DNA from: Ferrovum sp. JA12
GTDB lineage: Bacteria; Pseudomonadota; Gammaproteobacteria; Burkholderiales; Ferrovaceae
Direction of reading: 5' to 3'
Assembly: GCF_001431705.1 (NCBI RefSeq)
Contig: NZ_LJWX01000001.1
Coordinates: 868,001 to 932,000, forward strand
DNA length: 64,000 nucleotides
Numbering within the stretch: position 1 is the first letter of the stretch; every line of letters starts with the position of its first letter. Under the pieces are notes generated by a model. It saw only the letters and a program-made list of their open reading frames with translations, had not been told where the DNA came from and searched no databases. Below are positions 42,345 through 46,687 of this stretch, piece after piece. A program made the position numbers and the translations under genes.

Positions 42345-42394
42345 TTAAAGCTTTCTTTATTTGATTTTAACTATAAAAAGGGGTGTCACTGATT

Positions 42395-44278
42395 ATGGCA
42401 AACGATAACTCTAAGTCCGAATCCCGCCAAACTGATCTGGAAGAACAAAGGACACGCCTAAAAAATTTAGTGGTACTAGGTAAAGAGCGTGGATTTCTCA
42501 CTTACGCAGAGATTAATGATCATTTACCTGATGACATGCTAGATGCTGAACAGATCGAGTCTGTTATCGGGATGATTAATGACATGGGTATTGCCGTCTA
42601 TGACGAGGCCCCTGACAGTGAACAGCTATTGATGTCTGATGCTCCTCCAGCGGTCGCTGATGAGGATATCGTGGAAGAGGCGGAAGCGGCTTTATCTTCC
42701 GTCGACTCTGAGTTTGGCAGAACCACTGACCCTGTGCGTATGTATATGCGTGAGATGGGTACTGTTGACCTTCTTACTCGAGAAGGTGAAATTGAAATTG
42801 CTAAACGTATTGAAGATGGCTTGAAGCACATGATTCAGGCCATTTCTTCTTGTCCCTCCACCATTGATCAGGTATTGGAACTCGCTGACAAAGTTGAGCG
42901 AGATGAACTAAGAGTTGATGAGGTTATAGATGGTCTAGTGGACCCCAACGGCGAAGAGGAAGAACTTGAAGCGCAAATGATGTCTAGCGAAGAAGAGTTA
43001 GACATTGAAGAAGAAGGTGAGGATGGTGAAGGTGGTGCCATTAGTAACGCCAATCTCGAGCAACTTAAGGCTGATGCCTTAGCGCGTTTTGCCTCCATTC
43101 GTCGTCTTAGTAAGCGCATGAAAAAAGCCTTGGCTGAAAAAGGGACACGTAGTAGAGCCTATAAAGATTTGCAAGAAAGTATTTCGCAAGAGTTGATGGG
43201 TATTCGCTTTACAGCCAAACAAGTTGAAAGCCTTGCTAATGGATTGCGTCATTTGGTGGAACGCGTTCGTCAACACGAAAAAGAAATTATGAAGTTGTGT
43301 GTGGATATGTCTGGTATGCCCCGTAATCACTTCATCAAATCTTTCCCTGGTAATGAAATCAATACTAAGTGGATAACGGATGAGGCTTCAGGGCGTAAGG
43401 CTTATAGCACAGCATTAACTAGGTTGAAACATAATGTTGTTGAACAGCAAGAGAACTTATTAGCTATACAGAGAGATGTTGGTTTACCTATTAAGGATTT
43501 GAAAGAAATCGCTCGTCAAATGTCCACAGGTGAGGCACGTGCTCGTCGGGCTAAACGCGAAATGATTGAAGCTAACTTGCGTTTAGTGATTTCTATTGCA
43601 AAAAAATACACCAACCGCGGTTTACAGTTCTTGGATCTTATTCAAGAAGGAAACATTGGTTTAATGAAAGCAGTGGATAAGTTTGAATACCGACGAGGTT
43701 ATAAATTCTCAACTTATGCCACTTGGTGGATTCGCCAGGCTATTACTCGATCCATTGCGGATCAAGCTAGAACCATTCGTATTCCTGTGCATATGATTGA
43801 AACTATCAATAAGATGAATAGAATCTCTCGTCAAATTCTGCAGGAAACAGGTATTGAACCAGATCCAGCGGAGCTAGCGCAAAAAATGGAAATGCCTGAG
43901 GACAAAATCAGAAAAATCCTTAAGATTTCTAAAGAACCTATTTCGATGGAAACTCCTATTGGCGATGATGATGACTCCCATTTGGGTGATTTTATTGAGG
44001 ATACAGCAACCTTAGCGCCTTCTGATTCAGCTCTTTATGCCAGTCTGAGAGAGGCCACTAAAGATGTTTTAGATTCATTAACGCAGCGTGAAGCTAAAGT
44101 GTTAAGAATGCGTTTTGGTATTGAGATGAATACAGATCATACCTTAGAGGAGGTGGGGAAACAGTTTGACGTCACCCGTGAGCGGATCCGTCAGATTGAA
44201 GCCAAAGCTCTGAGAAAACTGCGACATCCGTCACGCTCGGAAAGATTAAGAAGTTTCATCGATAATAATGAAAGTTAA
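42395..44278 (+). CDS. rpoD: RNA polymerase primary sigma factor (sigma-70)
   Basis: Housekeeping sigma factor of 627 aa from the ATG at 42395; a GTG at 42383 is a less likely start. Region 1.1 is at the N-terminus, followed by 1.2 ([16 protein letters not shown]), a long acidic non-conserved insert (about 185-220), region 2 with [14 protein letters not shown] and [17 protein letters not shown], region 3, and region 4.2 ([20 protein letters not shown]). Last gene of the macromolecular synthesis operon. The split tRNA-Ile gene lies 135 nt downstream. Confidence 0.98.
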
Positions 44279-44372: not shown

Positions 44373-44400
44373 TTGATGATTGCTGGCAATGTTGTATAAT
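44373..44400 (+). promoter_or_regulatory. Promoter of the split tRNA-Ile gene
   Basis: TTGATG (44373-44378), a 16-bp spacer and a perfect TATAAT (44395-44400), 13 nt before the tRNA. The -35 overlaps an inverted repeat TCATCAAA/TTTGATGA (44351-44358 and 44372-44379). Confidence 0.65.
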
Positions 44401-44413
44401 AAACAAGTTATAT

Positions 44414-44735
44414 GGGCCGTTAGCTCAGTTGGTTAGAGCAGAGGACTTAAGTACGGTCGACCTAAAGCGCACGCTATGGTCGACAGTGAATGGGTTGCAT
44501 GTGAGTAAGTTAGCTCTGCTGGCATGTAGAACTACTCAAATTCGGGGAAGCCTGTGCTGTAAAGCGTGGTAATCCCGAGCCAAGCCTCTTAGCATTAAGA
44601 GGAAGGTGTAGAGACTGTACGGGTAGGTCGTAAAGACAAGAGACAGTCCAGACTACAAACTGGAAACAGGCAGTGAAAGCTGTAGTAGTAAGCATAATCC
44701 TTTGGTCCGGGGTTCAAGTCCCTGACGGCCCACCA
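44414..44735 (+). tRNA. ileX: tRNA-Ile(CAU), interrupted by a group I intron
   Basis: The two exons are 44414-44447 and 44693-44735, giving a 77-nt tRNA with encoded CCA. Acceptor GGGCCGT pairs with ACGGCCC; D-arm GCTC/GAGC; anticodon stem GAGGA/TCCTT closed over loop CT-CAT-AA; a 5-nt variable loop; T-arm CGGGG/CCCTG with loop TTCAAGT. The CAU anticodon in a frame like E. coli ileX (CTCATAATC) points to tRNA-Ile2, whose C34 is changed to lysidine by TilS, rather than tRNA-Met; identity as Ile is by similarity. The intron falls between U33 and C34. A promoter precedes and a strong terminator follows. Confidence 0.9.
44448..44692 (+). ncRNA. Group I intron (IC3-like, no ORF) in tRNA-Ile(CAU)
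   Basis: About 245 nt, ending in the expected G (44692). P1: exon GACU with a U-G pair at the splice site to GGUC (44455-44458). P2: GTCGACC/GGTCGAC (44456-44462 and 44478-44484). P3: CTACTC/GGGTAG (44532-44537 and 44621-44626). P4: TCGGG/CCCGA (44542-44546 and 44574-44578). P6a: CCTCTT/AAGAGG (44585-44590 and 44597-44602). P7: GACTGT/ACAGTC (44613-44618 and 44643-44648). P9: GCAGT-GAAA-GCTGT (44670-44683), a GNRA-capped stem. CAAATTCGG, CCGAGCCAAGC and GAAGGTGTAGAGACT match the Azoarcus tRNA-Ile ribozyme. No endonuclease gene is inside. Confidence 0.92.
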
Positions 44736-44740
44736 AAACT

Positions 44741-44775
44741 AAGGACTCAGACATTCTCTGAGTCCTTTTCTTTTT
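44741..44775 (+). terminator. Terminator of the tRNA-Ile gene
   Basis: A perfect 10-bp stem AAGGACTCAG/CTGAGTCCTT (44741-44750 and 44758-44767) with a 7-nt loop, then TTCTTTTT. It begins 5 nt after the tRNA CCA. Confidence 0.9.
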
Positions 44776-45145: not shown

Positions 45146-45514
45146 GGCATTATAAAAGCTCTCAATGAGGCCAGCAACCGAGGTGTCAGCATCTCTATGC
45201 TCTTAGAGTCCTCAATGGGTCACGGCGGAAGCATCAACATCGACATAATCGGAAAGATGAGAACATTGGTTCCACCAGCACAACTCTTTGCGTGGCAAGA
45301 CAAGACCGAACTATTTATTGATGGTCGGATGTATGCAAAGGTTGCTATTGCAGATGGCGTAGTGTGTTTCATCACGGGCGCGAATCTGACGGGGCATGCA
45401 ATGGAGAAAAATATGGAAGCTGGGGTGCTCCTCATCTCCGGAGGACGTATCCCCCAATTACTCGACCAGCATCTGTGTTCCTTGATCGACACAAAAGTGA
45501 TCTCGCCAGTCTGA
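45146..45514 (+). pseudogene. C-terminal remnant of a phospholipase-D-family protein, DrmC-like
   Basis: An in-frame TAG at 45143-45145 cuts the frame; the readable part from 45146 gives about 122 residues, IIKALNEASNRGVSISMLLESS onward, the second half of a PLD-family protein. An internal ATG is at 45197. The H-x-K-x4-D active-site motif reads Y-A-K-V-A-I-A-D: the catalytic His is Tyr. ITGANLTGHAMEKNMEAGVL is the conserved segment after it and is reminiscent of DrmC, the PLD protein of DISARM defence systems. No other drm gene is nearby. Loss of the N-terminal half and the active-site His mark it as dead. The DrmC assignment is from memory and moderate. Confidence 0.65.
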
Positions 45515-45602
45515 GTTTTCCCTGATCCAATGAAGCATTTAGCCGCCACTGAACATGCTCTGATCTTTTGGATGTAAATGGGTGTGTTTTTGGATAGCGC
45601 AC

Positions 45603-45630
45603 TTGAAATGGGTGTAATTGGGTGTATCAT
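45603..45630 (+). promoter_or_regulatory. Promoter of the Fic gene with GGGTGT repeats
   Basis: TTGAAA (45603-45608), a 16-bp spacer and TATCAT (45625-45630). The predicted start point is at or next to the Fic ATG (45638), implying a leaderless message. The spacer contains GGGTGT twice (starting 45610 and 45620), with a further copy at 45580; these may be operator repeats. Confidence 0.5.
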
Positions 45631-45637
45631 TGGTTCC

Positions 45638-46687
45638 ATGATTAAAACCGACACAATCCATATCACCCCGGACATTCTGTCACTGATCGCTAGAATTGAT
45701 GAATTCAAGGGGGCTTGGCGTGCCTTGGGGACGCTCTCCCCCGACAGGCTGTCTGCCCTGCGCCGCGTTGCCACTATCGAAAGTATCGGCTCGTCAACCC
45801 GGATTGAGGGCAGTAAATTGTCCGACCGCGAGGTCGAGCGATTGCTGTCCAACCTGCAGATCAAAAACTTCACCAGTCGTGACGAACAAGAGGTGGCAGG
45901 CTACGCAGAGGTCATGGAGCTAGTTTTTTCGTCGTGGAAAGACATCACATTCACCGAAAACTATATTAAGCAGTTGCACCAGAATCTTCTCGTTTACAGC
46001 GAGAAGGATGTATGGCATCGCGGCAACTACAAGACCACATCCAATAGCGTCGCCGCCTTTGATGAAAACGGCACACAGCTTGGGATCGTGTTTCAGACAG
46101 CTTCACCTTTTGACACGCCACGTTTGATGAACGAATTGGTGACATGGGTGCAGGAAGAACGCGATTCAAAATACCTGCATCCGTTACTCATCATTGCGGT
46201 GTGGGTCGTCGTATTTCTGGAAATTCACCCGTTTCAAGACGGCAACGGTCGCCTTTCGCGCGTGCTCACAACCCTGTTGCTATTGCAATCAGGCTATACC
46301 TACGCGCCCTATAGTTCACTGGAGAGCGTCATCGAGCAAAGCAAGGAAGCCTACTATCTGTCACTACGTCAAACCCAAGGGACGATTCGCAGCGATGCCC
46401 CGAACTGGCAACCATGGCTGGTGTTTTTCCTACGTTCGCTGACCGAGCAGGTCAAGCGACTGGAAAAGAAGGTGGAGCGCGAAAAACTGGTGCTGGCCAC
46501 CTTGCCGGAACTTTCACTGCAAATCGTCGAGTTTGCCCGCGAGCATGGTCGCGTCACGATTGGCGAAGCAATTAAACTGACCGGTGCAAGCCGCAATACA
46601 CTCAAGCAACATTTCCGCACGTTGATTGAACGCGGACACTTGAACCAGCACGGTAGCGGACGGGGTGTCTGGTACGAGCTTCGCTGA
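45638..46687 (+). CDS. Fic-domain protein with N-terminal inhibitory motif (class II)
   Basis: Protein of 349 aa from the ATG at 45638. Fic enzymes usually transfer AMP from ATP to a target Tyr, Ser or Thr. The catalytic motif HPFQDGNGR is complete, with His197. The autoinhibitory helix [S/T]xxxE[G/N] appears as Ser53-Thr-Arg-Ile-Glu57-Gly58, so this is a class II Fic whose Glu blocks ATP binding until released. The C-terminus (about 270-349) is a winged helix (TIGEAIKLTGASRNTLKQHF), suggesting DNA binding and autoregulation. Codon use is GC-rich relative to neighbours. No antitoxin gene is adjacent, as expected for class II. Target unknown. Confidence 0.93.
   Translation: MIKTDTIHITPDILSLIARIDEFKGAWRALGTLSPDRLSALRRVATIESIGSSTRIEGSKLSDREVERLLSNLQIKNFTSRDEQEVAGYAEVMELVFSSWKDITFTENYIKQLHQNLLVYSEKDVWHRGNYKTTSNSVAAFDENGTQLGIVFQTASPFDTPRLMNELVTWVQEERDSKYLHPLLIIAVWVVVFLEIHPFQDGNGRLSRVLTTLLLLQSGYTYAPYSSLESVIEQSKEAYYLSLRQTQGTIRSDAPNWQPWLVFFLRSLTEQVKRLEKKVEREKLVLATLPELSLQIVEFAREHGRVTIGEAIKLTGASRNTLKQHFRTLIERGHLNQHGSGRGVWYELR

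What the first reader, a model, noticed from the sequence alone, without database searches (positions are those of the whole stretch)
44414..44735. tRNA-Ile(CAU) split by a compact group I intron
The exons join to a perfect 77-nt tRNA with CCA. The intervening 245 nt contains complementary pairs for P3, P4, P6a, P7 and a GAAA-capped P9, and sequence blocks shared with the Azoarcus tRNA-Ile ribozyme. The tRNA is needed for AUA decoding after TilS modification, so viability depends on splicing. Gene finders often miss such split tRNAs.
Basis: partly seen in the sequence, partly recalled or inferred. Interest (0 to 1): 0.85.

Follow-up and report, generated by a model that had tools for sequence, protein, structure and literature searches.

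The report
Isoleucine tRNA split by self-splicing intron
The only gene this bacterium has for the tRNA that reads the isoleucine codon AUA is cut in two by a small self-splicing RNA of a known kind, placed one step before the anticodon at a spot that the literature I could search does not describe, and relatives of the cut gene travel on integrating mobile DNA that breaks this same tRNA gene.

Summary
Window 44414-44735 is a tRNA-Ile(CAU) gene split by a 245-nt group I intron (44448-44692); the exons join to a 77-nt tRNA ending in CCA. No other tRNA-Ile(CAU) was found in the 99.98% complete genome, which encodes TilS and uses AUA codons. Rfam Intron_gpI matches full length but below its cut-off (30.4 bits; E 4.7e-6). 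A 72-sequence alignment of introns at the same site gives overwhelming covariation (91% of cells paired against 32-42% when slid) and an invariant P1 with U33.G, which places the 5' splice site between U33 and C34. This is not the Azoarcus site (U36|A37); a congener carries that other intron in the same rpoD-linked gene.

The intron is not rare: at least 97 loci in five bacterial groups; three viral contigs carry its 3' junction. Introns in tRNA-Ile2 of Acidovorax and Burkholderia were already noted (PMC8450103). In about 20 relatives the split gene sits next to a tRNA-Ile 5' half broken right after the anticodon loop CTCATAA, often with arm-type repeats: it looks like a rescue tRNA of integrating elements. 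Both intron positions interrupt that att core, so the intron may shield the rescue tRNA. The window copy is resident, with no such relics.

The parts
44373..44400 (+). promoter-like TTGATG-N16-TATAAT in front of the tRNA
   Evidence: consensus scan, 10 of 12 matches; 1 found, 0.7 expected by chance
44414..44447 (+). 5' exon of tRNA-Ile(CAU), positions 1-33
   Evidence: contiguous intron-less homologues in the same order
44448..44692 (+). 245-nt group I intron between U33 and C34; last base is the terminal G
   Evidence: Rfam RF00028 E 4.7e-6; covariation on 72 homologues
44444..44449 (+). P1 5' strand (exon GACU plus intron UA); splice after 44447
   Evidence: U33.G pair in 72 of 72 homologues
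44491..44496 (+). P1 3' strand, internal guide sequence (UGGGUU; the guide is GGUU)
   Evidence: invariant GGGUUGC in 72 of 72
44452..44488 (+). hairpin in the P1 loop carrying a CCUAAA...UAUGG element resembling the 11-nt tetraloop receptor
   Evidence: 9 of 10 pairs of the main helix change on both sides; receptor naming is from knowledge
44498..44526 (+). P2
   Evidence: 7 of 8 pairs change on both sides
44532..44537 (+). P3 5' strand (pairs with 44621-44626)
   Evidence: 100% of cells paired, 5 of 6 pairs change on both sides
44542..44578 (+). P4-P5 (P4 44542-44547/44573-44578)
44579..44607 (+). P6 and P6a
   Evidence: P6 C-G/G-C swap in 35 of 72 sequences; the four outer P6a pairs all change on both sides
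44613..44618 (+). P7 5' strand, G-binding helix (pairs with 44643-44648)
   Evidence: 93% of cells paired; one pair shows four standard types
44621..44637 (+). P3 3' strand and P8
44643..44648 (+). P7 3' strand
44652..44689 (+). P9 with two GAAA-capped hairpins (P9a loop 44663-44666, P9b loop 44675-44678)
   Evidence: 94-100% of cells paired
44693..44735 (+). 3' exon, from C34 to the end, with anticodon CAU (44693-44695) and CCA
44741..44767 (+). intrinsic terminator behind the tRNA
   Evidence: 11-pair stem and T-rich tail

Best explanation
The locus is the native, rpoD-linked and only tRNA-Ile2(CAU) gene of a Burkholderiales bacterium, interrupted by a mini group I intron without an endonuclease gene. 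The pre-tRNA should fold so that P1 (exon GACU with guide GGUU) puts the U33.G wobble at the 5' splice site; a guanosine bound in P7 attacks after U33, the freed U33 attacks after the terminal G at 44692, and the exons join with the normal 7-nt loop CUCAUAA. TilS then modifies C34 so that the tRNA reads AUA. Shown: exon fit, no other gene found, conserved ribozyme fold, splice-site pairing. Inferred: the chemistry and its need for life. The near-identical intron in other genera points to recent horizontal arrival.
For: Cut at 44447/44693 gives a 77-nt tRNA with anticodon CAT. Full-length Intron_gpI alignment, E 4.7e-6. Structure on 72 homologues: 91.0% of cells paired against 31.7-42.0% when slid and 75.8% when shuffled; 43 pairs with changes on both sides. 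U33.G in 72 of 72 and terminal G in 99 of 99. Sole gene: 36 other tRNAs found, the only two other CAT genes being initiator and elongator Met. TilS present; 33 of 251 Ile codons in eight window genes are AUA. In 200 genomes of the order, 9 have the split gene and 166 an uninterrupted one, only 1 both (Fisher p 2.6e-6). Window, Polynucleobacter rarus and L154 share 97.5-98% of the gene, all differences inside the intron, while rpoD of L154 is only 77% identical.
Against: The Rfam score is under the gathering cut-off. No RNA evidence exists here. The tRNA-Ile(GAU) and tRNA-Ala(UGC) genes are not found in the assembly either, so gaps exist and could hide another tRNA gene. No clear P10 was seen.
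Confidence: 0.93

Rival explanations
1. It is an orthologue of the Azoarcus tRNA-Ile(CAU) intron, at the same site.
For: Same tRNA and shared core blocks; congener G002 does carry an intron with a GUG guide at U36|A37 in the same rpoD-linked gene.
Against: The window intron splices at U33|C34 with guide GGUU. Its DNA aligns to G002 only in the exons, and the nearest match in the plasmid collection is a Bradyrhizobium tRNA-Leu(UAA) intron, 68.5% over 182 nt.
Confidence: 0.04
2. The copy is a dead, unspliced relic and AUA is read by another tRNA.
For: No expression data; the assembly is not gap-free for tRNAs.
Against: All core helices are intact; no second Ile(CAU) gene was found; split and intact genes are almost mutually exclusive in the order.
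Confidence: 0.03
3. The 5' splice site is one base further on, as in tRNA-Leu(UAA) introns, and the product is a tRNA-Ile(UAU).
For: The boundary GGACUUAAG equals that of the Bradyrhizobium Leu(UAA) intron.
Against: This needs a terminal C instead of the invariant G, five of 99 homologues have C as first intron base, the guide pairs U33.G in all, and TilS, which acts on CAU, is present.
Confidence: 0.02

Closest known systems
Azoarcus BH72 tRNA-Ile(CAU) group I intron
   Same: same tRNA, small ribozyme with the same kind of core and no endonuclease gene
   Different: Azoarcus cuts after the anticodon CAU with a 3-nt guide (PMC6274277); here the cut is before the anticodon, with guide GGUU and an extra hairpin in the P1 loop
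Group I introns in tRNA-Ile2 of Acidovorax and Burkholderia, mentioned in the tRNAscan-SE 2.0 paper (PMC8450103)
   Same: same gene and order; very likely includes this family
   Different: that passage gives no insertion site, structure, distribution or link to mobile elements
tRNA-Leu(UAA) group I introns of cyanobacteria, plastids and proteobacteria
   Same: closest core sequence found outside tRNA-Ile; similar exon boundary GGACUU
   Different: inserted between U34 and A35 of another tRNA, other guide sequence
tRNA-dependent lysogeny of mycobacteriophages (PMC10865867)
   Same: an integrase cuts an essential tRNA gene at a short core, and the element brings its own tRNA to replace it
   Different: applies to relatives such as G001, not to the window; no intron in the rescue tRNA is reported in the passages I read

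Membership tests
Group I intron (Rfam RF00028) | catalytic core P3-P4-P6-P7-P8 with the P3/P7 pseudoknot | tested here: met
   all helices present, covarying in 72 homologues
Group I intron (Rfam RF00028) | U.G wobble at the 5' splice site in P1, and terminal G | tested here: met
   72 of 72 and 99 of 99; the terminal G was part of the search pattern, so it is partly built in
Group I intron (Rfam RF00028) | score above the curated gathering cut-off (a curation threshold, not a biological feature) | tested here: not met
   30.4 against 50 bits, though full-length and E 4.7e-6; the model fits this branch poorly, the structural features decide
Group I intron (Rfam RF00028) | guanosine-dependent self-splicing | not testable with these tools
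   needs RNA
Azoarcus-type tRNA-Ile intron | insertion after the anticodon (U36|A37), GUG guide | tested here: not met
   U33|C34, GGUU guide
tRNA-dependent integrative element | host tRNA broken at a short core, rescue tRNA and integrase on the element | tested here: not met
   for the window: no broken halves, no arm repeats. For relatives G001 and others: met in outline

The most novel reading that the evidence does not exclude
Introns in tRNA-Ile(CAU) are spread and kept because they shield the gene: integrating elements cut this tRNA at the anticodon loop CTCATAA and bring a rescue tRNA, and a group I intron placed inside that 7-bp core (at U33|C34 or, independently, at U36|A37) makes the rescue copy, and resident copies such as the window's, invisible to the integrase while splicing keeps the tRNA normal.
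Probability: 0.3. Interest if true: 0.82.

Novelty: new variant of a known kind. Interest (0 to 1): 0.58.

Why it matters
It shows an essential tRNA apparently depending on a ribozyme in an ordinary betaproteobacterium, at an anticodon-loop position (before the anticodon) not described in the papers I could search, and in a family large enough (about 100 loci) to study by comparison. Rfam's cut-off and tRNA finders both miss it, so AUA-decoding tRNAs can be wrongly scored as absent. The link to elements that integrate into the same anticodon loop gives a testable reason why short introns without endonucleases spread and persist in tRNA genes, an old open question, and may bear on the origin of the classic Azoarcus ribozyme.

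Tried and rejected
A P1 formed by the GGUC at 44455-44458 looked good in the window (4 pairs) but is not conserved; the invariant GGGUUGC downstream is the guide. A homing endonuclease was looked for: the longest open stretch within the intron is 60 codons, so none. Remains of a broken tRNA or arm-type repeats around the window gene were looked for and not found. Integrases close to the Limnohabitans one were found near only 5 of about 120 split genes; of seven further downstream proteins of relatives scanned with Pfam, one was an integrase, the others an HsdM methylase, an ABC-3C protein and unrelated genes, so an adjacent integrase is not a constant feature. The hit in Pelagibacter phage HTVC120P is a related intron core between two capsid reading frames, not a tRNA. 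L158 (Azoarcus-like 5' half joined to a U33-type 3' half, with P3 broken) was set aside as a likely assembly chimera. A tree places the window with P. rarus and L154 (support 99), but deep branches and the Leu/Azoarcus types are unreliable because long branches meet. The founding papers on Azoarcus-type and cyanobacterial tRNA introns were not held, so 'site not described' rests on the papers I could search.

Full report
WHAT IS THERE. Window 44414-44735 reads, without its middle 245 nt, as a complete 77-nt tRNA with anticodon CAT and encoded CCA. ARAGORN finds no tRNA in the unspliced window. It lies 135 nt behind rpoD (42383-44278), with a promoter-like TTGATG-N16-TATAAT at 44373-44400 and a terminator at 44741-44767. 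Rfam at its own cut-offs reports nothing; with a permissive threshold Intron_gpI aligns over its whole length at 44439-44673, 30.4 bits, E 4.7e-6, against a gathering score of 50. It is the only Intron_gpI match in the genome.

ONLY GENE FOR ITS JOB. The genome (1,995,738 bases, 3 contigs, 99.98% complete) has 36 other tRNA matches; those with anticodon CAT are an elongator Met (L015) and an initiator Met (L021). A search for the 3' half with up to three mismatches finds only this gene. TilS is present, and AUA is 33 of 251 isoleucine codons in eight genes of the window. Caution: tRNA-Ile(GAU) and tRNA-Ala(UGC), normally in the rRNA operon, are also missing from the list, so the assembly has gaps. 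In a sample of 200 genomes of the same order, 9 carry the split gene and 166 an uninterrupted one by exact pattern, and only one of the nine has both (Fisher p 2.6e-6). The order is taken as Burkholderiales because G040's contig has the length of, and the same split gene as, a Lautropia record.

STRUCTURE AND SPLICE SITE. A pattern for the 3' junction (TRGTANGCATAATCCNTTGGT) hits at least 120 stretches in the named genome collection; the scan stopped at its limit. In 97 of them a tRNA(CAT) can be spliced by joining GGACT to CATAATCC. They come from Betaproteobacteria (61 rows of the tree), some Gammaproteobacteria, Opitutia, Planctomycetia and Acidobacteria. Seventy-two introns of similar length align well. 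The structure I drew (P1, a hairpin in the P1 loop, P2, P3, P4, P5, P6, P6a, P7 as pseudoknot, P8, P9, P9a, P9b) pairs in 91.0% of cells, against 31.7-42.0% when partners are slid and 75.8% when shuffled; covariation score 0.423 against 0.151; 43 pairs change on both sides. P3 pairs in every sequence although five of its six pairs change. P1 is invariant: G30.U, A31-U, C32-G, U33.G in 72 of 72. The intron ends in G in 99 of 99 (the pattern asked for that G), and starts with T in 94 and C in 5. Together these put the splice between U33 and C34. The CCUAAA...UAUGG element in the P1-loop hairpin resembles the 11-nt tetraloop receptor (knowledge, not tested); two GAAA loops in P9 are candidate partners.

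NOT THE AZOARCUS SITE. The Azoarcus intron uses the anticodon CAU as the end of its 5' exon (PMC6274277), that is U36|A37. In a congener (G002) the same rpoD-linked gene, with identical exons, holds an intron of that kind: CTCAT|AGAAAATTGTGC...AAATCGG|AATCC, 222 nt. So one genus has had two different introns at two sites of one gene. By DNA, the nearest relative found among plasmids is a Bradyrhizobium tRNA-Leu(UAA) intron, 68.5% over 182 nt. A published overview places most bacterial tRNA introns immediately behind the anticodon (PMC4033280). The tRNAscan-SE 2.0 paper mentions group I introns in tRNA-Ile2 of Acidovorax and Burkholderia without details (PMC8450103), so the kind is known.

HORIZONTAL MOVEMENT. 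Window, Polynucleobacter rarus (L161) and a contig labelled Thermoflexus (L154, which carries an rpoD 77% identical to the window's) share 97.5-98% of the split gene; all 6 and 8 differences lie inside the intron. The congener G001 has only 83%. A tree groups the three (support 99).

THE MOBILE CONTEXT IN RELATIVES. In G001 the native gene has been cut. Next to rpoD lie two 5' halves, each ending at ...GGACTCATAA; then comes a complete split gene of the window's type, then a tyrosine integrase; an orphan 3' half (CTCATAATCC...) lies about 35 kb away, next to the genes that follow the tRNA in the window. In between lies the 5' part of a U36-type split gene whose intron is itself interrupted by unrelated, transposase-like DNA. 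The same element left end and integrase (99.85% over 1977 nt) occur in Limnohabitans sp. Jir61. Across the loci, 20 broken 5' halves were found; all diverge from the tRNA directly after CATAA (15) or one or two bases later (5). Loci with such a remnant have paired direct repeats, mostly of period 11, upstream of the split tRNA (mean best length 9.6, n = 17, against 5.7, n = 80), like arm-type integrase sites. The window has neither. Three viral contigs carry the 3' junction of the split gene, and in two of them the whole split gene is in the stretch held; one of these has a phage DNA polymerase nearby.

WORKS LIKE. This matches tRNA-dependent lysogeny (PMC10865867): an integrase cuts an essential tRNA gene at a core of about 10 bp and the element brings its own tRNA. 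Those authors speculated about tandem integration into the rescue tRNA itself. Here both intron positions fall inside the core CTCATAA, which would remove that target. To test this without selecting for introns I searched 399 genomes for broken halves. Three of the 12 hits are U36-type split genes rather than breaks, and two true breaks have no rescue gene in view. Of the seven rescue genes next to the remaining breaks, four are split (two U36 type, two U33 type), two are uninterrupted, and one, uninterrupted, has itself been cut. At most 34 of 200 genomes lack the uninterrupted gene, so 4 of 7 is suggestive (about 2% by chance, my estimate) but small. That no intron-bearing gene was seen broken is uninformative, because such genes are rare.

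VERDICT. A true, conserved, almost surely functional split tRNA; new in site and context rather than in kind. The shield idea is the most interesting reading and is open.

Noticed in passing
L199 and L197 (G001:C4:62000-104500): Native tRNA-Ile(CAU) cut by integrating elements: two 5' halves beside rpoD, orphan 3' half about 35 kb away, a complete intron-bearing tRNA-Ile gene and part of another between.
   Followed up: partly
L043 / L200 (G002:C34:77744-78043): Congener carries an Azoarcus-type intron (U36|A37) in the same rpoD-linked gene, exons identical to the window's.
   Followed up: yes
L198 (G001:C4 near 89400): U36-type intron interrupted in its P3/P4 region by unrelated DNA that looks like a transposase gene, so this copy is probably dead.
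   Followed up: no
L158: Apparent chimera of a U36-type 5' half and a U33-type 3' half of the intron, with P3 broken; assembly artefact or gene conversion.
   Followed up: no
L154: Contig filed under Thermoflexus hugenholtzii carries an rpoD and split tRNA close to betaproteobacterial ones: misbinned or mislabelled.
   Followed up: no
window 45197-46687: Between the tRNA and the conserved downstream genes lie a partial phospholipase D-like reading frame and a Fic family gene; perhaps cargo of an old island.
   Followed up: partly
L219: Viral contig with a split tRNA-Ile(CAU) just behind another tRNA gene and a phage DNA polymerase about 3 kb away.
   Followed up: partly
L221 2501-2649 (Pelagibacter phage HTVC120P): Related group I intron core between two reading frames both annotated as capsid protein: probably an unannotated intron in the capsid gene.
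   Followed up: no
genome G000: tRNA-Ile(GAU) and tRNA-Ala(UGC) are not found in the 3-contig assembly, probably a missing rRNA operon.
   Followed up: no
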